Virus record (IMG/VR): IMGVR_UViG_3300033150_000987
Span: 1 to 27,114 of that record
Source of the DNA: a virus
Direction: 5' to 3' (one strand)
Length of the DNA stretch: 27,114 bases
The notes under the pieces: model-generated
The model's input: only the letters and a program-made list of their open reading frames with translations
Told to the model about the DNA's origin: nothing
Database searches by the model: none
Position numbers and translations under genes: made by a program
Shown: one piece after another, positions 2,989 through 16,858 of the stretch
Numbering within the stretch: the stretch's first letter is position 1
Layout: the number at the start of each line of letters is the position of its first letter

Positions 2989-3124
2989 CGTGCTTCTTTC
3001 CCACGTTCGCATAGAGAGCACGCAGATGGGCCAGGGCAGCCTTGCGGCTACGGTGTCTCTTGAGCCGTACCCACCTACCATTGCGCTTGACCATCACGGT
3101 CGTTCCATTCAGTTTATATGGCAC
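2975..3124 (-). CDS. 49-aa basic small phage protein
   Basis: A GTG at 3124 shares its G with the stop codon of the protease gene (TAGTG), giving a 49-residue basic protein starting MPYKLNGTTVMVKRNGRWV. The ending ALAHLRALYANVG with a helical HLRALYAN segment resembles the common small phage proteins whose pattern is M-P-Y-K... with a C-terminal LRALYAN helix (recalled pattern, not searched). An ATG at 3199 would give 74 residues, but the added part lies over the protease tail and is Arg/Gly-rich shadow sequence. Very basic composition suggests nucleic acid or virion association; function unknown. Confidence 0.65.
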   Translation of the reverse strand: MPYKLNGTTVMVKRNGRWVRLKRHRSRKAALAHLRALYANVGKKHGGKK

Positions 3125-3939
3125 TACTCGCCCCGTTCTTCCTCGAACTTGCGCCGTTCCTCGTCCCGCTCCCGGCGTCGCCTGCGTTCCTCGGCGCATT
3201 CCTCAGAAGTCCTCTCGGGGTTGATAATAAAGTCGAAGACCTGATCCCGAAGGAACTGATAGATGCGCGCCACAGTGATCGCAAAGCCAAGGTGTGTCAC
3301 CACATCTGCCGAGAAACCCAGCGGCACTACAGCGATCCGCGCCGGGACGCCAATCATGTAGCCCGACTCCTCAAGAAACGTCGCCCCACCCGAGTTGCCA
3401 AAGATGGAGGGTGCCGTCACCATCAGGTAGTCCTTGTTGTCGATGTCACACCCGAAGGCTGACAGAAACCCCTTGGTGATGACTGGCTTCTCGCCCATCC
3501 CGCACCCGACGGTCCATACGTCCATGAAGGAGATAAGATGATTGATGTCTTCCTCGGGAAGCAGGTTCGCCACATACTTTTGCGGGTCGGGGCTAATGAT
3601 CTGGAGCAAAGCTAGGTCCTCATCCTTGTCGTAGGCTACAATATCCGCCTGGAGACCCCTAGAGCCCACATCTCGGCTGGTGTAGGCATAAGTAAAGAAC
3701 TCCACCATCGGATGCCCGAGAACGTCTGTAGGAACTTCCCGCTTTAGGAGCGTGCTCCACTTCTTCTCAACCTTGATGAGATTGTCCACTACATGCTCGT
3801 TCGTGAGCACGTAGATGTGATGCATCCCATCTCTCTCTTCCATGTAGATCACAGTTCCCGAACCCAACGCCTTGGGGGTTCGAATGCGAACACATGGATA
3901 GAGACAACGCTCGTGCCTTTCCTTCAAAGACAGCGCCAT
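3124..3939 (-). CDS. Trypsin-like (HtrA/S1-type) serine protease
   Basis: The fold signature of chymotrypsin-like serine proteases is visible: GSGTVIY near residue 27, His49 in LTNEHVV, Asp108 in DEDLALLQI and Ser183 in GNSGGATF, in the usual order and spacing for a His-Asp-Ser triad. There is no signal peptide, transmembrane segment or PDZ domain, so it probably acts in the host cytoplasm or in the virion. The last ~40 residues are almost entirely Glu and Arg, a possible interaction tail. A GGGAGGAA site precedes the ATG. It lies among late genes between two very basic small proteins, so a role in processing virion proteins during assembly is plausible, but most phage maturation proteases are of other families; the role is inferred. 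Confidence 0.85.
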   Translation of the reverse strand: MALSLKERHERCLYPCVRIRTPKALGSGTVIYMEERDGMHHIYVLTNEHVVDNLIKVEKKWSTLLKREVPTDVLGHPMVEFFTYAYTSRDVGSRGLQADIVAYDKDEDLALLQIISPDPQKYVANLLPEEDINHLISFMDVWTVGCGMGEKPVITKGFLSAFGCDIDNKDYLMVTAPSIFGNSGGATFLEESGYMIGVPARIAVVPLGFSADVVTHLGFAITVARIYQFLRDQVFDFIINPERTSEECAEERRRRRERDEERRKFEEERGE

Positions 3940-4510: not shown

Positions 4511-6619
4511 CTAGCTATCCTTTTCAAGCACGAACGTGAATGTGTGCGTTCGTCGGTAAAGGGTTGTCGTCCGGGTCCGAGCGACCAACTCCATCTCGTA
4601 GTACCGCACGTGGGGGGCGAAGTCGACAAGGCCCCAATAGCCAAAAGCCCTTCCCACAAGGTCCAGGAGCCCTTGCAGAGATTTCCCAATCCCACGAGAC
4701 ACGTTCCCACTCATGGCGAGAGCGCCCTGAACGCCCTTGCCCGTCTGCTGCCACGCAACGGTTGCGGCCATCGCAAGAGCACCCGCAAGAGCTTTGCCCG
4801 CTCGCCGGGCGAGGCTGCCAGCGGAGCCCAACGTGCCCGCAAAAGCGATACTCGTGCGGCGACAGACAGAGCCGACGGGAGTGAGAGCCCCCACAAGAGC
4901 CCGCCCCACGTGCCGAAGCAGGCCACCGGCAGCGGAAAACGCCCCCACAACCGGGATGGCCGTTCGGCGGGCGAGCGCTCCCGCGCTTGTGAATGTCCCT
5001 ACCACGGTCTTGAAGAAGGCTTTGAGCGCACTAAGAGCCCCCGTGGGGGTGAGCGTTCCCCCTAGGGCCTTGTTCGCTTGCGCTAGCAAGCCGCCCGCTG
5101 CGGAGAGCGCACCGACCAGTTGCTTTCTTCCCTGAGCGACAAGCGCCCCCGCCCCATCCCACGCACCGGAGAGCGTCTTGGGCACCCACCTTAGAACCGC
5201 CCCCGCCGGGGACAGTGCCCCAGCAAAGGATACCGCAACCTTCTTGAGGGCCGCCCCGGTGGAGCTGAATGTGCCAGCGTAGGAGACCGCTGTGGCTCGT
5301 AAGAGCGCCCCAGAGGAAGCAAGGGTCCCCGCTACGTCCTTGAAGAACTCCTGGGCACCGGGGAGATACTGGGTTGCCAGACCACCGGCACTTGACAAAA
5401 CGCCCGAGAGGGCTCTACGCGCTTGTCTGACGAGGGCACCGGCGCTACTCAGTGTGCCCGCCAGAACCTTTCGCGGCAGGTAATCCAATACACCCGAGGG
5501 GGAGAACGCCCCCTCAACACTCTTCAGAACCGCCTTGATAGTGCCAAGTACGCCCGAAGGCGTCAGCGTACCGCCAAACGCCTTCGGAACCCACTTTATC
5601 AAGGAGCCGGACGGAACAAGCGAGCCCACAAACGAAGTTGCAGTCTTGCGAGCCAGCGTGCCTGTACTAGATAAAGTACCCTGGACCGCTTTGAGAGTCT
5701 TACCGACGAGAGCGCCACTAGAGGAGAGCGCCCCCGACAGGGCCTTCCGGCCCTGGGCCAGGAGAGCACCTGCGCCAGACAACATACCCGAAAGGCGGCG
5801 CGTGCCCTGCTTGACCAAAGACCCGCTCGGAGGAAAGGAGCCCACTCGCGAAACGCTTGTGGCTCGGGCCGCGACCCCCGAGCCCGTGAAGACGCCCGCT
5901 TTCGGAAGCTGTGCGAGAAAAACACTCACGCCGGTGGGGGTGAGGGAGCCAGCAATGCTCTTGAAGTATTCTTCCCCACCCGCATACCGCCCGTCCCAGG
6001 TGATGCCGCGAGCATTATTGCTGACAGCAGAATAGGAATCCGTAATAGTACTGGAGAAGCCCGAATGTTTGTAATGCGTACCCGGATCTTGGCTTATCTT
6101 GATCCCAGATGATAGAACATTGGTGCCATCCCAGGCCATAGCCCATGGTTCATCCGTTGGGGTGGAATAGCAGGCCGTAATGGTACTAGAGAAACCAGAA
6201 TGTTTATAGTGCTTATCGTATTGCCTACCTACTGAGAGAACATTATTATCATCCCAGGTGATGCCAGGTACGTAACGACACGGGGTATCATAACTATCAG
6301 TGATAGTGTCGGAGAAGCCAGAGTGCTTATAATGTTTGTATGCGAAAAAGTCTGCGGATATGACATTACTACCATCCCAGCCAATGCCGCTTGGCTCATT
6401 AGCAGGGCTAGAATAGCAAGCCGTGATAGTATCAGAGAAACCGGAGTGTTTATAGTGTTTGTTGGTATCTGCGCCCGTGGCCAGTAGATCAGTGCCATCC
6501 CAGGCCATTCCCGAGAGATCGTATGAGACAGAATAGGAAGCCGTGATAGTGCTAGAAAATCCACTATGTTTGTAGTGTTTGTCGGGGACCATGGTCCCGC
6601 TGATTACATTCCCGGCCAT
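4511..6619 (-). CDS. 702-aa repeat-built tail-fibre-like protein (fibre B)
   Basis: Two repeat systems are evident. Residues ~1-220 hold five copies of a ~40-residue unit containing KHYKHSGFSSTITASYS and a WDGTNVLS element, which resembles blades of a beta-propeller. Residues ~225-645 consist of roughly 20 or more copies of an ~18-residue unit of the GALSSAGALxRxxxKAL kind, alternating small residues with a basic spacer, as in a fibrous shaft. The C-terminus returns to a beta-rich region (RTRTTTLYRRTHTFTFVLE). The 372-aa protein at 8869-9987 has the same plan with a shorter shaft. A receptor-binding or fibre role is inferred from repeats and late-operon position. Confidence 0.75.
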   Translation of the reverse strand: MAGNVISGTMVPDKHYKHSGFSSTITASYSVSYDLSGMAWDGTDLLATGADTNKHYKHSGFSDTITACYSSPANEPSGIGWDGSNVISADFFAYKHYKHSGFSDTITDSYDTPCRYVPGITWDDNNVLSVGRQYDKHYKHSGFSSTITACYSTPTDEPWAMAWDGTNVLSSGIKISQDPGTHYKHSGFSSTITDSYSAVSNNARGITWDGRYAGGEEYFKSIAGSLTPTGVSVFLAQLPKAGVFTGSGVAARATSVSRVGSFPPSGSLVKQGTRRLSGMLSGAGALLAQGRKALSGALSSSGALVGKTLKAVQGTLSSTGTLARKTATSFVGSLVPSGSLIKWVPKAFGGTLTPSGVLGTIKAVLKSVEGAFSPSGVLDYLPRKVLAGTLSSAGALVRQARRALSGVLSSAGGLATQYLPGAQEFFKDVAGTLASSGALLRATAVSYAGTFSSTGAALKKVAVSFAGALSPAGAVLRWVPKTLSGAWDGAGALVAQGRKQLVGALSAAGGLLAQANKALGGTLTPTGALSALKAFFKTVVGTFTSAGALARRTAIPVVGAFSAAGGLLRHVGRALVGALTPVGSVCRRTSIAFAGTLGSAGSLARRAGKALAGALAMAATVAWQQTGKGVQGALAMSGNVSRGIGKSLQGLLDLVGRAFGYWGLVDFAPHVRYYEMELVARTRTTTLYRRTHTFTFVLEKDS

Positions 6620-6620
6620 G

Positions 6621-7214
6621 CTACACCCACCGCCCTAGCCAGTGGCGCTGCAGCGAATCGAAGTCAGCCCAGACCACTTGGTACCCCGCATCTAGGAACT
6701 TGCGGCAGAAGTAGAAATCCTCGCTGCTCTGTAACAGACCCCTTTCGTCGTACTCATCTGCAAACCACGGTGGCTCTAGTTTCTCCAGTACGTCACGTCG
6801 TATGAGCATCCCGGCACAACCGACAGCCTGACATGGTTGCACACCGGTCCATGGCCTATGCTGCACGTACTCACACCTGTTCTCAGTGGCATCTAACACC
6901 ATGGGGCCTATCTCATCCCCTATCTGTGTCATGTGCGGCGCAGCAACCAGGGGCACATCCATCGCCGTCATGCGCAGCAGACAGCCGTCGGGAGGCACCG
7001 CGTCACTGTCCAGGATGAATAGGTGTGTACATGGTGTCTCCAAGAACCGCCACACCTGTAGGTTGCGGGCGTGTACCAACGTCCGCTTCTCGCGGAAGAA
7101 ATCGAGAGAACAGCGCGGTGTCCCCCGCAAGACCTGCCTATGCGCCCACATCAACGGCTCCGGCATCGTGGTGTGAACGCAAGTGCCCGAAATCAGCACG
7201 TGCGGCTCGCTCAC
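6621..7214 (-). CDS. GT-A-fold glycosyltransferase-like protein (copy B)
   Basis: At ~197 residues this is a compact GT-A/GT2-like domain. A predicted strand THLFILDSDAVPP places a DxD-type metal/nucleotide-sugar motif at residues 69-71. A shared VGCAGMLIRRDVLEKL...PPWF segment (131-151) and an acidic SSEDFYFCRK segment (Glu165-Asp166), where GT-A enzymes often carry their catalytic base, follow. No transmembrane segment is seen, so it would act in the cytoplasm. Its ATG overlaps the stop of the adaptor-like 170-aa gene and the fibre B gene starts one base after its stop. It is clearly a paralogue of the protein at 7825-8418. Glycosylation of a fibre or of a host glycan is inferred. Confidence 0.7.
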   Translation of the reverse strand: MSEPHVLISGTCVHTTMPEPLMWAHRQVLRGTPRCSLDFFREKRTLVHARNLQVWRFLETPCTHLFILDSDAVPPDGCLLRMTAMDVPLVAAPHMTQIGDEIGPMVLDATENRCEYVQHRPWTGVQPCQAVGCAGMLIRRDVLEKLEPPWFADEYDERGLLQSSEDFYFCRKFLDAGYQVVWADFDSLQRHWLGRWV

Positions 7215-7723
7215 GCCTTGCCCTTCTCCTCATTGAACGCGGCGGACTTGGCCTCGCACTTAGCAATAATATCTGTCATCGGCTCCAGCGTCGGTTTGGT
7301 CACTTTGAGCGCAGCAAAATCGTCAGCCTCTTCCTGTGACAGACTCAACCCCGCATTTACCTTGGCTGCATATAGGTCCGCCTTGGCTTTCGCCGTCTCA
7401 TCGAGGCGCTCCTCTGGCATCCCTTGATTAACGCGCCAGTCTGCCATGAGCGCGTCGGCCTCGCTCTCCGTGACGATCTCCATATCAGGATGTGCGGCAT
7501 AGGTTTCAGCCAGTTCGTCGGGCAGAACGATGAGGCAATACTCGTGATCGCCACCTTTACCAATGTCGCCCGAATAGCCGCACATGCCACCACTCATGCG
7601 CGGGCCAATGCCTACACGATCAATCTCTTCCGAATCATATGGCCCGCCATGTGCGGCATCGGGATAGACCATCATATCCTCACCAGGGCCACCCCGACGT
7701 ATCTTGACCTTGACTACCTTCAT
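7211..7723 (-). CDS. 170-aa conserved cassette protein (adaptor B)
   Basis: The protein starts MKVVKVKIRRGGPGEDMMVYP and shares its whole layout with the 162-aa protein at 8384-8872: the same N-terminal strand, a Gly-rich GGMCGYSG-like segment, an IVLPDELAE..Y...PDMEIV segment, an ADALM..WRV segment and a C-terminal helix with AGLSLSQEE. It has no enzyme motif I can name. Each copy sits directly before a glycosyltransferase gene, and here the stop overlaps the next ATG. A GAAAGGGGAGTC site precedes the start. A partner or assembly role for the glycosyltransferase or fibre is inferred from this repeated linkage only. Confidence 0.7.
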   Translation of the reverse strand: MKVVKVKIRRGGPGEDMMVYPDAAHGGPYDSEEIDRVGIGPRMSGGMCGYSGDIGKGGDHEYCLIVLPDELAETYAAHPDMEIVTESEADALMADWRVNQGMPEERLDETAKAKADLYAAKVNAGLSLSQEEADDFAALKVTKPTLEPMTDIIAKCEAKSAAFNEEKGKA

Positions 7724-7824
7724 GACTCCCCTTTCTGTCGACTCTCAGTCAACGTCAGTTGGCTTCCTTTAAGGATAGGCTGACACACTAAAGTGCATTC
7801 GTCTTGCTCCATTATCTTCGCCCT

Positions 7825-8418
7825 CTACACATCTTTGCACCGACTACGTATCTGTATCAGGTCGCAATCCGCCCACACTTCGATCCCCGCCTCCGCCAAC
7901 TTCTCGCAGAAGTGAAAGTCCTGCCCCAAGAGCACCTTGGTCCGATCCTCGTTGTAGAGAGTATGGAACCAAGGAGGCTTAAGCTTCTCGCACACATCCC
8001 GGTGAATAAGCATCCCCGCCGAGCCCACGGCGTCGCACTTCTGCAACCCTTCCAAAGGGGAATGCTGGCGATACCGATATTTCCCCACCTTATCCAGACA
8101 CATGACTATGGGTTTGTTATTCTTCAGCGTAATCCCCGGAGCCGAAACAAAAGGCAGATCATAGGCCAGGAGTTTCTGAAGCGTGCCGGGTTTGGGGATC
8201 AGGTCCGAATCCAGAAGGAATAGGAACTCAAAGGGCGAGGAAAGGAAGCGCCGTATCTGCGTGTTTCGCACCACGTCAGTAGGCCCCACGATAAGGATGT
8301 CGTCTACATCTACCTTTGCTGGCCCCATTTGAAGCTGGGTCTTTCTCGCCCAACGCGACGTTCGTATATCCACCGGCCCTTTGCTAGGGAAGCTGATGAG
8401 CGCCTTGTTTATCCACAC
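7825..8418 (-). CDS. GT-A-fold glycosyltransferase-like protein (copy A)
   Basis: This 197-residue paralogue of the protein at 6621-7214 has the strand EFLFLLDSDLIPKPG with DSD at residues 70-72, the matching VGSAGMLIHRDVCEKL...PPWF segment (131-151) and LLGQDFHFCEK (Gln166-Asp167) in place of Glu-Asp. The start is a GTG at 8418, chosen because AAGGAGG lies seven bases upstream; it lies 35 bases inside the preceding 162-aa gene. It is predicted to transfer a sugar from a nucleotide donor. The Glu-to-Gln change beside the likely catalytic acidic residue may mean a different specificity. Donor and acceptor are unknown. Confidence 0.7.
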   Translation of the reverse strand: MWINKALISFPSKGPVDIRTSRWARKTQLQMGPAKVDVDDILIVGPTDVVRNTQIRRFLSSPFEFLFLLDSDLIPKPGTLQKLLAYDLPFVSAPGITLKNNKPIVMCLDKVGKYRYRQHSPLEGLQKCDAVGSAGMLIHRDVCEKLKPPWFHTLYNEDRTKVLLGQDFHFCEKLAEAGIEVWADCDLIQIRSRCKDV

Positions 8419-8872
8419 GCAGCAGCCTCCTTATGGGCCTAAGCCGCTTGTTGATACCGGGCGTTTCGTCGTCCGGGTCCAGGGCTTTGAGGTCCTCGGC
8501 ACTCAAGGCTAGCCCCGCTTCCTGCTTGGCACGAATGGCCGTGAGTCGAACGGGGTCCCGTACAACTTCCTCCGTCAGCCCCTTATCGACGCGCCATTGT
8601 TCCATAAGAGCGTCTGCTACCGACTCGGAGACGATCTCCATGTCGGGATCGAGAGCATACTCATCTGCTAACTCGTCTTTGAGAACAACGATACCCCACT
8701 CCTCATCCTCACCCCGCGCCAAACCACCGGACAGAGCGCACCGGCCCCCGACCGTTGGTGTAGCGTAGCCGTTGGCGTCTACCTCGTAGGGGTTATAGCG
8801 AGCGGGGTAAAGCATGGCGTCCTCGCCTTTGCTTTTGTCCCCACGACGTATCCGAATCTTGACAGCCTTCAT
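8384..8872 (-). CDS. 162-aa conserved cassette protein (adaptor A)
   Basis: Paralogue of the 170-aa protein at 7211-7723: it begins MKAVKIRIRRGDKSKGEDAM and repeats the GGRCALSGGLARG, IVVLKDELADEY, PDMEIVSESVADALM and WRVDKGLTEE segments in order. The C-terminus (GINKRLRPIRRLLRV) is basic and overlaps the start of the glycosyltransferase A gene by 35 bases. Its own start overlaps the stop of the 372-aa fibre gene (ATGA). The pair differ most in the C-terminal third. The function is unknown; the conserved position between fibre and glycosyltransferase genes is the main clue. Confidence 0.7.
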   Translation of the reverse strand: MKAVKIRIRRGDKSKGEDAMLYPARYNPYEVDANGYATPTVGGRCALSGGLARGEDEEWGIVVLKDELADEYALDPDMEIVSESVADALMEQWRVDKGLTEEVVRDPVRLTAIRAKQEAGLALSAEDLKALDPDDETPGINKRLRPIRRLLRVDKQGAHQLP

Positions 8873-9987
8873 TCAGCCTCCCAAGAGCAAACATACAAGG
8901 TAAACGTGAGAGAACGATCCCGGAGCTCGAACGTCTCTGTTCGGGTGGGGATACCCAGCCTGCCCCCGAAGAGGGAGCCCAAGAAGCTCAATACACCACT
9001 CAGCGAGATACGGTGGGTAAGGCCGGTCAAAAGAGACCCGGCCAACCCCAAAGCCCCCGCAACGATCTTCGTAAAGACTTTCGTTGCATTGAGAGCGCCC
9101 GCAAGCGAGAGTGCCCCGGAAAAAGCCCTCGGCACCTGCTTAGTCACGGCCCCAAGCGCTGACCACGCTCCGGCCAGGAGCTTCTGCGCCTCGAAGGTGA
9201 TAGCCCCGCCCAGCGACAGACTCCCCGTGAAAGTCGTCTGCGCCTCCCGAGCCAAAGCACCGGTGGAGCTCAGGCTGCCCGCCCTGCCCACAGAGACCCC
9301 AAAGGATGGGACCCCCGAGGGGGCGAAAGTGCCCGCCGCACCCTGCTCGTATTGTTGCGTCCCGTAACGCCCGTCCCACGCGATCCCCTCGGGGATGGTG
9401 CTGGGAGAACTGATACTATCGCTGATCGTGCCAGTATGGCCCGAGTGTTGGTAAAGAACGTCGTCGTCGGAATCACAAGAGTAAAGATTCGTCCCATCGT
9501 CAGAGAGATCGCGGGGTCTTGTGCTAGGGGCAGAAAAGCTGTTTGAGACCGTCGGGGAGAACCCCGACATTTGATATATCTTGTCCGTCCCGTAGTCGCA
9601 CATCCACAGATCGGACCCGATCCACACGGCACCTGTAGTGTAGCTGCCCGGCGAGTCGAGGGAGTCCGAGATAGTAGCGGTGAAGTCAGAGTGTTTGTAG
9701 CACTTGTCGTTGGGTGTGTAGTTAGTGTGAATCAGATTGGAGCCGTCCCAGGTACACCCATGAGGCTCATCATTCACCGAAAACGAATCGGAGATCGTGT
9801 CAGAAAAGCCCGAGTGCTTGTACGCTTTCCCGGAGGACGCATCCGTAGACAGGACATTATCCCCGTCCCACTCCATCCCCATCGGCCAGCCCGCAGGGGT
9901 GGAGTAGGAGTCGGAGATTGTTGTCGTGAAGTCCGAGTGCTTATAGTGCTTGTCCGCGCTGGTGTCGGCAGACAGGAGGTTAGCCAT
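8869..9987 (-). CDS. 372-aa repeat-built tail-fibre-like protein (fibre A)
   Basis: Residues ~1-215 hold five ~40-residue repeats with the motif KHYKHSDFTTTISDSYS followed by a WDGDNVLS-type element, as in fibre B. Residues ~220-340 carry about six or seven short ~18-residue units (GSLSSTGALAREAQ, GALSLAGALNA and so on), far fewer than fibre B. The C-terminus (RTETFELRDRSLTFTLYV) matches the closing beta region of fibre B. It is the first gene of the duplicated block and follows the 196-aa virion-like gene. A shorter shaft on the same head suggests two fibres of different length or a pair formed by duplication. Confidence 0.75.
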   Translation of the reverse strand: MANLLSADTSADKHYKHSDFTTTISDSYSTPAGWPMGMEWDGDNVLSTDASSGKAYKHSGFSDTISDSFSVNDEPHGCTWDGSNLIHTNYTPNDKCYKHSDFTATISDSLDSPGSYTTGAVWIGSDLWMCDYGTDKIYQMSGFSPTVSNSFSAPSTRPRDLSDDGTNLYSCDSDDDVLYQHSGHTGTISDSISSPSTIPEGIAWDGRYGTQQYEQGAAGTFAPSGVPSFGVSVGRAGSLSSTGALAREAQTTFTGSLSLGGAITFEAQKLLAGAWSALGAVTKQVPRAFSGALSLAGALNATKVFTKIVAGALGLAGSLLTGLTHRISLSGVLSFLGSLFGGRLGIPTRTETFELRDRSLTFTLYVCSWEAE

Positions 9988-9998
9988 ACGGCTAGACC

Positions 9999-10589
9999 TC
10001 AGTTACCGGCGGTGCAAGTCAGCTCGTAGGTGAACTGAATGCTGTCACCGTTGCCAACGTTGATCTCCGAGAACACGCTCCGGTCCATTAGAGTCCCGCC
10101 CGTAGAGGCATTGAACAGCCCGTGCTCGGTGATAGCCTTTGTGGTTGTGTAGCTGATGGTCCCCACACTCTTGTAGATGTTGGCCGAGGAGCCCTCTTCC
10201 TGAGAGCCCGCCACGCGATCCTCTCCATCGGTTGTCTCGATGTCAGTATCCGAAGCGTTCTCAGCAGTCGTCCCCACCCCAGAGTCGTGGTACTTGAAGT
10301 CGCCCCATGTAGAGGACTCCGTCTGGAGCTGATCCACCATGAAGTTCACGAAGGCGGTAGTAACAACCCGCGCACTTATCAGCCCGTAGTCGATGACCTC
10401 GCCGTCCGCTTTGCGATGCCGCGCCCAAAGCCGACCTTCCACGGTCGGGATATTGAGCAGTCTGGCCGGTATGATCCGCCACCCGCGAAGGATGTGCGGG
10501 AGGTTACGAAGCTTCCAAGAGAGGGGAGCCTTCTTGGCCCTGATAACCTTCGTCCCCAGTCTGCCGCGAAAAGTAACTGTACTCTCCAC
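9999..10589 (-). CDS. 196-aa conserved phage virion-type protein
   Basis: The start is a GTG with AGGAG eight bases upstream. The N-terminal ~45 residues are basic; the rest alternates strands with Gly/Ser/Thr-rich loops (SARVVTTAFVNFMVDQL, YHDSGVGTTAENASDTD). The C-terminal ITEHGLFNASTGGTLMDRSV then IQFTYELT pattern is one I recall from unannotated structural proteins in many phages. Placed between portal and fibre genes, it is probably a virion or tail component. It is not convincing as a major capsid protein. No catalytic motif is seen. Confidence 0.7.
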   Translation of the reverse strand: MESTVTFRGRLGTKVIRAKKAPLSWKLRNLPHILRGWRIIPARLLNIPTVEGRLWARHRKADGEVIDYGLISARVVTTAFVNFMVDQLQTESSTWGDFKYHDSGVGTTAENASDTDIETTDGEDRVAGSQEEGSSANIYKSVGTISYTTTKAITEHGLFNASTGGTLMDRSVFSEINVGNGDSIQFTYELTCTAGN

Positions 10590-12869: not shown

Positions 12870-12954
12870 TCGTCACCCTTTCAATCCAGCGAACGATCAT
12901 CAGCAATGCCCGCCGCAATATCTTGAGAAACTCAAGGAACAGTTCTTCGTTCAT
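12862..12954 (-). CDS. 30-aa coupled mini-protein
   Basis: An ATG at 12954 overlaps the stop of the 715-aa gene in an ATGA, and the frame ends in a TGA lying inside the first codons of the portal gene. The product starts MNEELFLEFLKILRRALLM and is one amphipathic helix ending in ERVTNG. Very short helical proteins of this style occur beside terminase and portal genes in many phages (recalled). Tight coupling on both sides argues that it is translated rather than chance. Function unknown. Confidence 0.6.
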   Translation of the reverse strand: MNEELFLEFLKILRRALLMIVRWIERVTNG

Positions 12955-15098
12955 ACTAGTGCGCTCAATCCTGATAGTCCGCTCAAACCGCCCAGCGCCG
13001 CCAACTCGTTCTCCTCCCCCGCTGTCTCCACCTTCTGAAACGCCAAGACCACAAACTTCCGAGCCGAGCCCAACACCGTATCGAAGTTCAAGGTAAAGCC
13101 CGTGCTATGAAAGGAGTAGTAACTGGCCTCATACCCAGAGCCCTGGGTGTGAAGAGGGCAATTGATGGCCTTGTCCTCCGAGAGAGAGGCATCATTGGAG
13201 TTGGGGGAGTGGTCCTGCTCCACCACGGCTAGTTGGCAGAGATCAGTGCTGGCATCCCATCCGGCAAAGACGAAAGGGGAGCCGCCGCCATAATCACCGT
13301 AGAGCCAACTGTCCACACTAGTCATCTGGGTGGGGAGAGCCAGCACAGCGATGGGCTCGAAGTCGGGACCGGAATAGACTTGGTTCCCCGTCGAAGTAGG
13401 GGTGTCTACAACGCCGCACCACGCGGGGTTTTTGGTCTGTAGGCACACCGCCCCGTATTCGTCATTAGTGTCGGCGTTCTCGCCCCGCGTGATAACCGTG
13501 AAGCCCTGGGAATACCCGTCCAACTCCAGAGAGTAGTTATCACTCTCTTTGATGGCCCGGCCCGTTGCTATCTGTCCTCGAGAGTAGGTGGTATAGGAAG
13601 AGCCGTGCTGCCAGTAGAGATCGACGCAGTTCTGATAGTCAGTCTCCCCTAGAGCGGCCAGTCCGATACAAGCGTAAGCATCCTCGTAGGTCGTATCGTT
13701 CAGAGGGGCATTGATACCCGAAGGGATCACTACCTGGGCGTACCAACCCGGGTCGCTCACGTCTTTGGCCCCATTCACCGTACCGTAAGGGGTAAAAGTC
13801 AGTACGTCGATAGCCAGATCATCCCCGGCAAAGAGGATGGCGCTCAGGTAGTAACCACTTGGGGGAGCGATGGTCCAGTTGATCCGCACCCCGTTGGTGA
13901 TAAGGGCGCTGTACTCTGCTTCCGCCAGGACGGACCCGTCCGACGGATCAAGAAGACAGATACACTTGTCTTTCATCCCCCGCCGATAGCACTTGGTATT
14001 GGCCTGGTTATCCTGGGCACTGATAGCCCATGCGAACTGGACAGACCCATCACAGGCCCCGAAGCCAAACCCGGCATCTGCCGCAAAGGCCCCGTTACTG
14101 GTGGCCTTGACCAGCCAGAAGATAGCTCCCTTCGCCGTCTTATCACCCAAGTTGGCCGTGGTAATGTCCTGGGTCCCGGTTCCCGTGTTGCAGGCCACCC
14201 TTGCAAGGGCGATGTTGACCTCCCCTTCCCCGCCTGGGGGAGGCTCCCCTCCCCCGCTGCCGGGGGGCTCTTCGTCGGGGTTGGGGTTCACGTCCGCATA
14301 ACCACAGCCCAAGGCCGCTCGGCCAATCCGCAGTTCGTCGAAATAGTAGAGCCGGTCAACGACGTTTCCAAAGATGTCGTCCCTCCAGCCCCACTTGTAG
14401 ACGCCAAAGGACATATAGGGACCAACATCATCGTTAGAAGCATTGACCCCGGAGAAGTCCACCACCAGATCGCCGTTCAACCAGACCTGGGTATATCCGT
14501 TGCCCTCGTAGTTGAAGTAGACTCGAATGATCCAGTCCAGCCACGTCCCCCGATAGTCCAGGATATTGCCAAAGGCGAAGGTCTGGGTGTGGGTAAACGA
14601 CCCGGGTCCTTCATCCTCGGGCGTGAAGGAGCGCGTATCCCCTCTTATCCATATTCTGAACTGCGGGTTGTACTGGCGATTCTCGCACTCGAAGTAGCAG
14701 GCAAGGATGGGCGAGCGGTACCTCTCGCCTGAATCGGGCATCGCTTGAAACTGCCAGATGAGCTCGTTGGAGCTACCAGAGCCGTGCTGTTGGTAGTCGG
14801 ACTCCCAGTCGGAGGGAAGATAGAAGGAGAGACCAATCCAGTATTCGTCGTTGAAACTGAAAACCTTGGCGTTTCGGTTGTCACCATCCTCCCACGGGTC
14901 GTCGTCATTGTCATTGACAGTCATCATAGAGCGGTAGGTGCTGGGAGTGTCTGTCCGATGGACGTAGTGCCTCAGCGCATACGTCCCCCTGGCTTGCTCC
15001 GTGGAGATGGTGGGATCGTTCCCATTCGAGTAGTAGCCATCTCGGTTGTTGAGGGGACTCTCGTGAGTCTTCTCGTAGATAAGACCCTCTCGCGCCAT
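12951..15098 (-). CDS. 715-aa two-domain virion protein with polysaccharide-lyase-like N-terminus
   Basis: Residues ~30-265 resemble the jelly-roll polysaccharide lyase family of heparin-lyase-I type (PF14099 by recall): EYWIGLSFYLPSDW, NELIWQFQAMPD, a segment with FRIWIRGDTRSF, TWLDWIIRVYFNYEGNG and VWLNGDLVVDFSG appear in the expected order. A Pro/Gly-rich linker at ~271-293 (PPGSGGGEPPPGG) separates it from a second beta-rich domain (~295-700) with DGYSQGFTVITRGENADT. This looks like a surface-glycan-binding or depolymerising protein on the tail. The catalytic residues cannot be assigned by eye. It is packed with the portal and a virion-like gene, overlapping both neighbours by a few bases. 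Confidence 0.65.
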   Translation of the reverse strand: MAREGLIYEKTHESPLNNRDGYYSNGNDPTISTEQARGTYALRHYVHRTDTPSTYRSMMTVNDNDDDPWEDGDNRNAKVFSFNDEYWIGLSFYLPSDWESDYQQHGSGSSNELIWQFQAMPDSGERYRSPILACYFECENRQYNPQFRIWIRGDTRSFTPEDEGPGSFTHTQTFAFGNILDYRGTWLDWIIRVYFNYEGNGYTQVWLNGDLVVDFSGVNASNDDVGPYMSFGVYKWGWRDDIFGNVVDRLYYFDELRIGRAALGCGYADVNPNPDEEPPGSGGGEPPPGGEGEVNIALARVACNTGTGTQDITTANLGDKTAKGAIFWLVKATSNGAFAADAGFGFGACDGSVQFAWAISAQDNQANTKCYRRGMKDKCICLLDPSDGSVLAEAEYSALITNGVRINWTIAPPSGYYLSAILFAGDDLAIDVLTFTPYGTVNGAKDVSDPGWYAQVVIPSGINAPLNDTTYEDAYACIGLAALGETDYQNCVDLYWQHGSSYTTYSRGQIATGRAIKESDNYSLELDGYSQGFTVITRGENADTNDEYGAVCLQTKNPAWCGVVDTPTSTGNQVYSGPDFEPIAVLALPTQMTSVDSWLYGDYGGGSPFVFAGWDASTDLCQLAVVEQDHSPNSNDASLSEDKAINCPLHTQGSGYEASYYSFHSTGFTLNFDTVLGSARKFVVLAFQKVETAGEENELAALGGLSGLSGLSALV

Positions 15099-15532: not shown

Positions 15533-16858
15533 CTAGCTTCTCCTGATACGGGCAATCACATTCCCTCTGGGTGGGGCGTTCACAAAGCCGAAGTTCGCCA
15601 CAAGGCCGTATGCAATTGCCTTGAGGCTGTGGTTGCAGGCGTCAATCGGCTTCTCTCTGATAGGACGGCCCTCCTTGATCTCTCGATACCGATAGAGGCT
15701 ATACTCCTCAATAGTGTGTTTACACTTCGGGTCATGAAACAGCCGGGGCTTCCCAGTTTGGGGGTCTTTGAGAAACGTTCGGTGTCTCATGATACCGTCT
15801 TCGATTGGGACGGGGAGTGAGTAGAGATAGACCCCCGCCTCCTTCAACCAGACCTCGACATGAGATGCCATCCCATGATGCTGTCTTCCCGCTATATCAA
15901 TGACGCCCCCCGCAACGTGCTTCCACCACCCCCTACCTTTGCAGGCGAGGATCACTTCCTGAGCAGTCCAACCAGTCTTGTAAACCTCGTCGATCTGGTA
16001 GACGTTGCCATCCTTGATCTGAACCACACAAACGGCATAAGCTCCGGCATAGCCCGGATCAATCCAGAGAAAAACAGGGCGTTTCTTGTCCAAAGGACAG
16101 GGGATAACGTGGTCCACATGCGAGAACTCAGGAAACACCACGGTTTTCGGAGGGCAGGGAATAGCGGCGAAACGCTCCAGAAACTCTTCTTGAGGATAGG
16201 TCGCCTCAAGGGCCTTGATCTCGGGATCCTCCCTTCCCCCCGGGAAGACGTGGGTGTTTGACCACGTGGGGAGGGAGAAAGACTTGGCGTCATCCAGATT
16301 GGCCCCTCGCCATCTGCTATAGAGCTCGGGATACCAGCGGTTGGCCTTCTCCATCGTACCGGAGAGGATCATGGGTCCCCGCGTCTCGGCAACACGGCCC
16401 CGGCATCTCAGAAAAGCCTCATACGTCTGCTGCCCCGCCTCCACCATGCACAAGGCCCTAGGAGCGGTTCCGGCGAGGCTAGTGGGGTCCTTGGAGGTCT
16501 CTGTCACGACGGTAACGCCGTGAAGGGTCACGATCCGCCATTGACCTTGCTTCGGAAAGGAGACTTCCCCCACCATATCCAAAGCAGTAAGCGCGTTGTA
16601 AAGATGCTCCATCTCGGGATGGGTGAGGTCGTAGTCCGGCCCCACCACCCAAAACACATCCCCCTTCTCGGCTCCAAAGAGCCAGATCAGAGCCTCCTCA
16701 CCCGTCAGGCGAGACTTCCCCGCTCGCTCTCCCCCCAAGACAAGCTTGATGCGTTCTGGCGATAGATGAGCCTCCCGCTGGGCGGGGGTGGGGATGTAGC
16801 CCCGGACCTTCCAGATGCGCTCGCGCATCTCTTCAGTCGCTCGCCAGATCGCTTTCAT
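15533..16858 (-). CDS. terL: Terminase large subunit
   Basis: This 441-residue protein drives DNA packaging through the portal and cuts the concatemer. The ATPase half shows a Walker A GGERAGKS at residues 42-49 and a Walker-B-like RALCMVEAG with Glu140. The nuclease half has the RNase-H-like acidic set: Asp267 in FLWIDPGYAGAY, Asp321 in GVIDIAG and Asp406 in PIDACNHSLKA. Length is typical of TerL. The start at 16858 overlaps the 90-aa gene by 26 bases and has only a weak site upstream; an ATG ten codons further in is an alternative. Confidence in the family is high. Confidence 0.93.
   Translation of the reverse strand: MKAIWRATEEMRERIWKVRGYIPTPAQREAHLSPERIKLVLGGERAGKSRLTGEEALIWLFGAEKGDVFWVVGPDYDLTHPEMEHLYNALTALDMVGEVSFPKQGQWRIVTLHGVTVVTETSKDPTSLAGTAPRALCMVEAGQQTYEAFLRCRGRVAETRGPMILSGTMEKANRWYPELYSRWRGANLDDAKSFSLPTWSNTHVFPGGREDPEIKALEATYPQEEFLERFAAIPCPPKTVVFPEFSHVDHVIPCPLDKKRPVFLWIDPGYAGAYAVCVVQIKDGNVYQIDEVYKTGWTAQEVILACKGRGWWKHVAGGVIDIAGRQHHGMASHVEVWLKEAGVYLYSLPVPIEDGIMRHRTFLKDPQTGKPRLFHDPKCKHTIEEYSLYRYREIKEGRPIREKPIDACNHSLKAIAYGLVANFGFVNAPPRGNVIARIRRS

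What the first reader, a model, noticed from the sequence alone, without database searches (positions are those of the whole stretch)
4511..9987. Duplicated fibre / adaptor / glycosyltransferase block
Reading leftward, the order is fibre A (9987), adaptor A (8872), GT A (8418), adaptor B (7723), GT B (7214), fibre B (6619). Each of the three protein types occurs twice and the copies are visibly paralogous along their whole length. Stops and starts overlap, so the set is translated as a unit. A short stand-alone GT-A enzyme paired with its own small partner and a repeat-built fibre suggests a phage system that glycosylates its own receptor-binding proteins, or modifies the host glycan that they bind. 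I know of no described system with this exact three-part duplicated layout.
Basis: partly seen in the sequence, partly recalled or inferred. Interest (0 to 1): 0.72.

Follow-up and report, generated by a model that had tools for sequence, protein, structure and literature searches.

The report
Mobile phage propeller–glycosyltransferase gene cassette
A phage carries two versions of a three-gene set (a small protein of unknown kind, a short sugar-attaching enzyme and a propeller-shaped probable virion protein) that recurs, almost always once and in the same order, in about twenty phage contigs, which suggests that many uncultured phages put sugars on their own particles with a portable gene set.

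Summary
The six genes are real and in the stated order: fibre A, adaptor A, GT A, adaptor B, GT B, fibre B. Both GTs are GT-A-fold enzymes by motifs and profile; the nearest solved structure is STIV A197. The 'fibres' begin with a five-bladed β-propeller (AlphaFold pLDDT 94) and end in variable repeats. The 'adaptor' has no recognisable relative by sequence or fold.

The trio is not peculiar to this contig. Adaptor, GT and propeller occur together on one strand in 20 distinct contigs, in that order in 19, and no adaptor was found without the other two. The window is the only contig with two adaptors. Its copies are not a local duplication (AU p 9e-4 and 4e-7). Cassette B is about 83% identical in DNA to a cassette in a phage sharing nothing else with the window, so it moves as a unit. 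GT A has lost the C-terminal metal-binding His.

Most likely the GT, helped by the adaptor, glycosylates the Ser/Thr-rich virion propeller. Propeller fold, GT family and linkage are shown; acceptor, sugar and adaptor role are inferred.

The parts
8869..9987 (-). fibre A, 372 aa: five-bladed beta-propeller (about 9370-9987) plus a short GxLxxxGAL-type repeat tail
   Evidence: ORF; five motif copies spaced 41 aa; AlphaFold model of residues 1-214 with 20 strands, pLDDT 94
8384..8872 (-). adaptor A, 162 aa, orphan family; nearest relative L030 at 58%
7825..8418 (-). GT A, 197 aa GT-A glycosyltransferase; DXD and xED-Asp kept, xED Glu changed to Gln, C-terminal His changed to Arg
7724..7824 (.). 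101-nt gap between the two sets; DNA similarity to the foreign cassette stops at its left edge (adaptor B start codon)
7211..7723 (-). adaptor B, 170 aa; 84-89% identical to L003/L004
6621..7214 (-). GT B, 197 aa GT-A glycosyltransferase with DXD (D69-D71), G-loop (G132), xED (E165-D166) and C-terminal His (H191)
4511..6619 (-). fibre B, 702 aa: five-bladed propeller (about 5987-6619) followed by about 490 residues mostly of GxLxxSGxL repeats
9999..10589 (-). flanking structural protein (phrog_5417 and head protein phrog_240); relatives also precede the cassette in L024, L026 and L031
10659..12869 (-). portal protein (context)
   Evidence: phrog_64
15533..16858 (-). large terminase (context)

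Best explanation
This is a portable phage cassette for a glycosylated virion propeller. The propeller protein is a virion component of the receptor-binding or fibre class, built on a five-bladed beta-propeller like that of the phage phi11 receptor-binding protein. The short cytosolic GT-A enzyme attaches sugar to Ser/Thr on that propeller before assembly, and the small orphan protein acts as its dedicated partner (substrate escort or GT cofactor). In this phage an intact cassette B was acquired by horizontal transfer beside an older, divergent cassette A whose GT has lost its C-terminal metal ligand. Shown: gene order, GT-A family, propeller fold (confident model), conserved linkage, horizontal mobility, independent origin of A and B, setting among virion genes. 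Inferred: virion location of the propeller, that it is the acceptor, the adaptor's role, and the donor sugar.
For: The trio is linked in 20 distinct contigs, 19 in the order adaptor-GT-propeller and usually with touching genes; no adaptor was found outside it. Adaptor and GT tree distances correlate (Mantel r 0.72, 4 of 2000 permutations as high). GT: profile hit to STIV A197 (2c0n, E 1.8e-4), a 203-residue PDB chain; A197 is the proposed glycosyltransferase for the glycosylated STIV coat protein (PMC4187194). Propeller: pLDDT 94, pTM 0.90, 20 strands; best five-bladed matches are glutaminyl cyclases (TM about 0.7), the fold named nearest to the phi11 RBP propeller (PMC4901313). Virion setting: neighbours are portal, head, terminase and fibre-like genes; in L029 the propeller is fused to a Sipho_Gp37 tail protein. 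Propellers are 24-31% Ser+Thr against 14% for ORFs over 150 aa. Sugar-modifying genes flank other cassettes: GTs, methyltransferase, DegT aminotransferase and hexapeptide transferase in L026, deacetylase in L040, L046, L053, sulfotransferase-like in L030, L048 and weakly L032. Phage GTs acting on virion proteins are known in mycobacteriophages.
Against: No acceptor is identified. High Ser/Thr may be a property of the repeat, and the background includes non-coding ORFs. The adaptor could itself be the acceptor. Some propellers (L042, L047, L052) lack a GT of this family on the DNA held. GT A departs at two motif positions yet is retained. No virion proteomics exists for these uncultured phages.
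Confidence: 0.45

Rival explanations
1. The small 'adaptor' is the glycosylated polypeptide or a minor virion protein, and the propeller is a lectin-like partner that binds the glycan or is docked by it.
For: The adaptor is the gene most tightly tied to the GT, their trees correlate, and its alpha/beta fold has no catalytic relative.
Against: The adaptor has no Ser/Thr-rich or repetitive segment and its conserved motifs (GEDMMVYP, PDMEIV, LDPDDPTPGINK) look like packing or binding surfaces rather than acceptor sites.
Confidence: 0.17
2. The GT modifies a host surface glycan (receptor masking or conversion) and the propeller is the receptor-binding protein matched to it.
For: Five-bladed propellers act as glycan-binding RBPs (PMC4901313); the GT is paired with the putative RBP; neighbouring sugar genes in other contigs could build any glycan.
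Against: The GT is a short single domain with no evident membrane segment, encoded with late structural genes; known seroconversion systems use membrane-bound GTs with a flippase and sit apart from virion genes (own knowledge). It does not explain the conserved adaptor.
Confidence: 0.15
3. The GT glycosylates another virion protein (capsid or tail tube, as in mycobacteriophages) and is linked to the propeller only because both are late structural genes.
For: Mycobacteriophage GTs act on capsid and tail tube proteins (PMC12363180); a head-family gene lies next to the cassette here and in L024, L026 and L031.
Against: The propeller stays next to the GT while the other neighbours change from contig to contig, and the cassette moved between phages without capsid genes.
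Confidence: 0.15
4. GT A is a decayed or non-catalytic copy, so only cassette B works and the doubling is a transient by-product of cassette turnover.
For: GT A has Arg in place of the C-terminal His and Gln in the xED motif and sits on a long branch.
Against: The ORF is intact with DXD and xED-Asp kept and follows a good ribosome-binding site (AAGGAGG); C-His is lost in several active GT-A families (PMC7185993). Compatible with the main reading.
Confidence: 0.35

Closest known systems
STIV A197 (PDB 2c0n), stand-alone viral GT-A glycosyltransferase
   Same: Very similar size, GT-A family, best solved-structure hit of the family profile, DXD and catalytic Asp; proposed to glycosylate the virus's own coat protein
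   Different: Archaeal virus; no adaptor or propeller partner is mentioned in the passages read
Staphylococcus phage phi11 receptor-binding protein Gp45
   Same: Five-bladed propeller in a phage protein, nearest fold glutaminyl cyclase in both cases
   Different: No sequence relation was found here; phi11 Gp45 is a stem-platform-tower trimer, while here the propeller is N-terminal and made of near-identical 41-aa repeats
Mycobacteriophage virion glycosylation (Che8 gp110, Corndog gp38, Myrna)
   Same: Phage-encoded GTs that modify virion proteins
   Different: Acceptors there are capsid and tail tube proteins; no adaptor-propeller cassette is described in the passages read; not compared by sequence here
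NHL/PknD-type beta-propellers
   Same: Weak profile relation to the PknD sensor and designed Pizza propellers (E 1e-4 and weaker)
   Different: Five blades here (20 strands) instead of six

Membership tests
GT-A fold glycosyltransferase | DXD metal-binding motif | tested here: met
   LDSD in both copies; both Asp invariant or nearly so in 17 relatives
GT-A fold glycosyltransferase | xED motif with catalytic Asp | tested here: met
   Asp invariant in 17 relatives; Glu is Gln in GT A and varies in some relatives
GT-A fold glycosyltransferase | G-loop Gly | tested here: met
   G132 invariant
GT-A fold glycosyltransferase | C-terminal His | tested here: inconclusive
   GT B has it (Q-R-H); GT A has Q-I-R; 15 of 17 rows have His
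GT-A fold glycosyltransferase | Profile relation to a solved GT-A structure | tested here: met
   2c0n A197, E 1.8e-4; Pfam GT2 families hit in several members. The GT itself was not modelled.
Five-bladed phage receptor-binding propeller | Five four-stranded blades | tested here: met
   20 strands, pLDDT 94; five 41-aa repeats in most members, but three in L004
Five-bladed phage receptor-binding propeller | Virion location and receptor binding | not testable with these tools
   Only indirect: structural neighbours and fusion to Sipho_Gp37 in L029
Phage virion glycosylation system | Phage GT encoded with virion genes | tested here: met
Phage virion glycosylation system | Sugar found on a virion protein | not testable with these tools
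   Uncultured virus

The most novel reading that the evidence does not exclude
A previously undescribed, horizontally mobile cassette in which an orphan escort protein hands a phage's own propeller-type receptor-binding protein to a dedicated GT, so that the adhesin is glycosylated before assembly; phages swap or stack cassettes to change the sugar coat or specificity of their adhesins, some adding deacetylase, sulfotransferase or methyltransferase steps.
Probability: 0.35. Interest if true: 0.7.

Novelty: new variant of a known kind. Interest (0 to 1): 0.52.

Why it matters
Glycosylated phage virions are known in only a few systems. A compact three-gene unit that travels between unrelated phages and carries its own presumed acceptor would give a testable genetic marker for virion glycosylation in uncultured phages, and a small system for asking how a phage GT finds its protein target. 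The orphan adaptor family, found only in this setting, is the most informative unknown.

Tried and rejected
Local duplication of the trio: rejected by AU tests for both adaptor and GT, although a pairing of A and B that pre-dates the split from L003/L004 is not excluded (AU p 0.096 and 0.31). A frameshift at the end of GT A: reading the DNA gives no better C-terminus, so the lost His looks like a substitution. Adaptor-GT fusions that would prove interaction: the long GTs in L040 and L053 carry a second GT domain, not an adaptor. The adaptor's C-terminal motif in other contexts: all hits were cassettes already known. Adaptor fold by Foldseek: no match below E 0.001 in the viral library or the PDB. 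Cultured phages: no relative of adaptor B or of the L024 adaptor, nor of fibre A or the L031 propeller; only weak partial GT hits. Host: the one genome hit with a full trio is a Chloroflexota MAG contig, but a search of 400 genomes of that phylum found only that same genome, so the host is unresolved. Two adaptor-alignment scans failed for lack of conserved stretches.

Full report
Observation. The window is a 27,114-base uncultured virus record. The six ORFs exist as described: fibre A 8869-9987, adaptor A 8384-8872, GT A 7825-8418, adaptor B 7211-7723, GT B 6621-7214, fibre B 4511-6619, all on the minus strand. All three pairs are paralogous well beyond shuffled controls. Three junctions overlap, one is separated by 1 nt, and one (GT A to adaptor B) by 101 nt. 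Upstream lie terminase, a 715-aa protein with a polysaccharide-lyase domain, portal and a head-family protein.

What the proteins are. The GTs give sub-threshold Pfam GT2 hits on their own, but relatives hit GT2 and Anp1 families, and the family profile finds STIV A197, a solved viral GT-A enzyme of nearly the same length, as best PDB hit. The four GT-A core features named in PMC7185993 (DXD, G-loop, xED, C-terminal His) are all present in GT B. GT A keeps DXD, G-loop and the xED Asp, has Gln for Glu in xED and Arg for the C-terminal His; since C-His is lost in several active families, GT A may still work. I did not model the GT itself.

The fibres start with five 41-residue repeats. The AlphaFold model of fibre A residues 1-214 is confident (pLDDT 94, pTM 0.90) and has 20 strands, hence five blades of four strands. 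PDB comparison gives propellers throughout, the best-fitting being five-bladed glutaminyl cyclases (TM about 0.7). After the propeller come variable C-terminal parts: GxLxxSGxL repeats here, GTGTYTPLAITGTG repeats in L003/L004, an Ig-like domain and Sipho_Gp37 in L029, nothing in L032, L034 and L046. The adaptor is an alpha/beta protein modelled at pLDDT 83 with no match in Pfam, PHROGs (one weak hit among 17 members), PDB or the viral fold library.

Neighbourhood test. Profile searches of the fetched loci place an adaptor, a GT of this family and a propeller together on one strand in 20 distinct contigs including the window (copies of one contig counted once, L054 and L055 being one contig). 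The order is adaptor-GT-propeller in all but L046. A gene is inserted between adaptor and GT in L040, L053 and L055; in L040, L053 and (after the adaptor) L046 it is a polysaccharide deacetylase. No adaptor was found outside a trio; scans with its N-terminal and C-terminal patterns returned only such loci. The loci were found through adaptor or propeller queries, so this does not measure how often such GTs occur alone: GT-only contigs also turned up (L006-L021). Window apart, each contig has one adaptor.

Mobility and origin of the doubling. Nucleotide comparison of the window with L003 and contig G002 finds similarity only inside cassette B: 83% over 6567-7716 against L003 and 78% over 6253-7722 against G002, ending at the adaptor start codon, with weaker repeat matches inside fibre B. 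The rest of those phages is unrelated to the window. Trees place adaptor B and GT B with L003/L004 at full support, while copy A falls elsewhere; uniting the window copies is rejected (AU p 9e-4 for adaptors, 4e-7 for GTs). The window therefore carries two lineages of the cassette, at least one acquired horizontally. Distances between adaptor and GT trees correlate (r 0.72), consistent with co-inheritance.

Mechanism. The GT is short, has no evident membrane segment and is encoded with virion genes. The propeller is rich in Ser/Thr (24-31% against 14% for ORFs over 150 aa, a rough background), sits next to the GT throughout and is fused to a tail protein in L029. Five-bladed propellers are known in phage receptor-binding proteins (PMC4901313), and virion-glycosylating phage GTs are known (PMC12363180, PMC11256854). 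Other cassettes are flanked by further sugar-modifying genes. The best reading is glycosylation of the phage's own propeller protein with the adaptor as dedicated partner. Which protein carries the sugar, which sugar it is, and what the adaptor does remain inference. Rivals: the adaptor as acceptor, a host glycan as acceptor, or another virion protein as acceptor.

Novelty. Each element has a precedent (STIV A197, phi11 Gp45, mycobacteriophage virion glycosylation), but I found no description of the three-gene unit or of the adaptor family in the open-access papers searched, and no relative of adaptor or propeller in the cultured phage records. I rate it a new variant of a known kind.

Noticed in passing
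window 12951-15098 (-): 715-aa protein with an N-terminal polysaccharide-lyase domain (PF14099, E 5e-26) between terminase and portal; possibly a virion-borne depolymerase.
   Followed up: partly
window 3124-3939 (-): Trypsin-like serine protease (PF13365) just downstream of the cassette in the same strand block.
   Followed up: no
L026 240-6601 and L024 724-7088: A run of sugar genes (GT2 enzymes, methyltransferase, GT1-type enzyme, hexapeptide transferase, DegT aminotransferase in L026, with relatives in L024) directly upstream of the cassette and close to head genes: looks like a dedicated glycan pathway.
   Followed up: partly
L004 10915-11712 and L003 4478-5275: A second, 265-aa GT of the same broad family, right after a head-tail-connector-like gene and before tail genes.
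   Followed up: partly
L004 9084-10028: Only three propeller repeats instead of five; a closed propeller would need more blades or oligomerisation.
   Followed up: no
L053 7923-16649 and L050 8001-11732: Very long ORFs (2908 and 1243 aa) with extra propeller-type repeats beyond the first five.
   Followed up: no
L046 6168-10329: Four separate propeller genes around one adaptor, one deacetylase and one GT: a multi-propeller version of the cassette in a different order.
   Followed up: partly
L008, L009, L013, L016: About 466-470 aa proteins with an N-terminal part that reads like a methyltransferase and a C-terminal GT of this family, found without adaptor or propeller.
   Followed up: no
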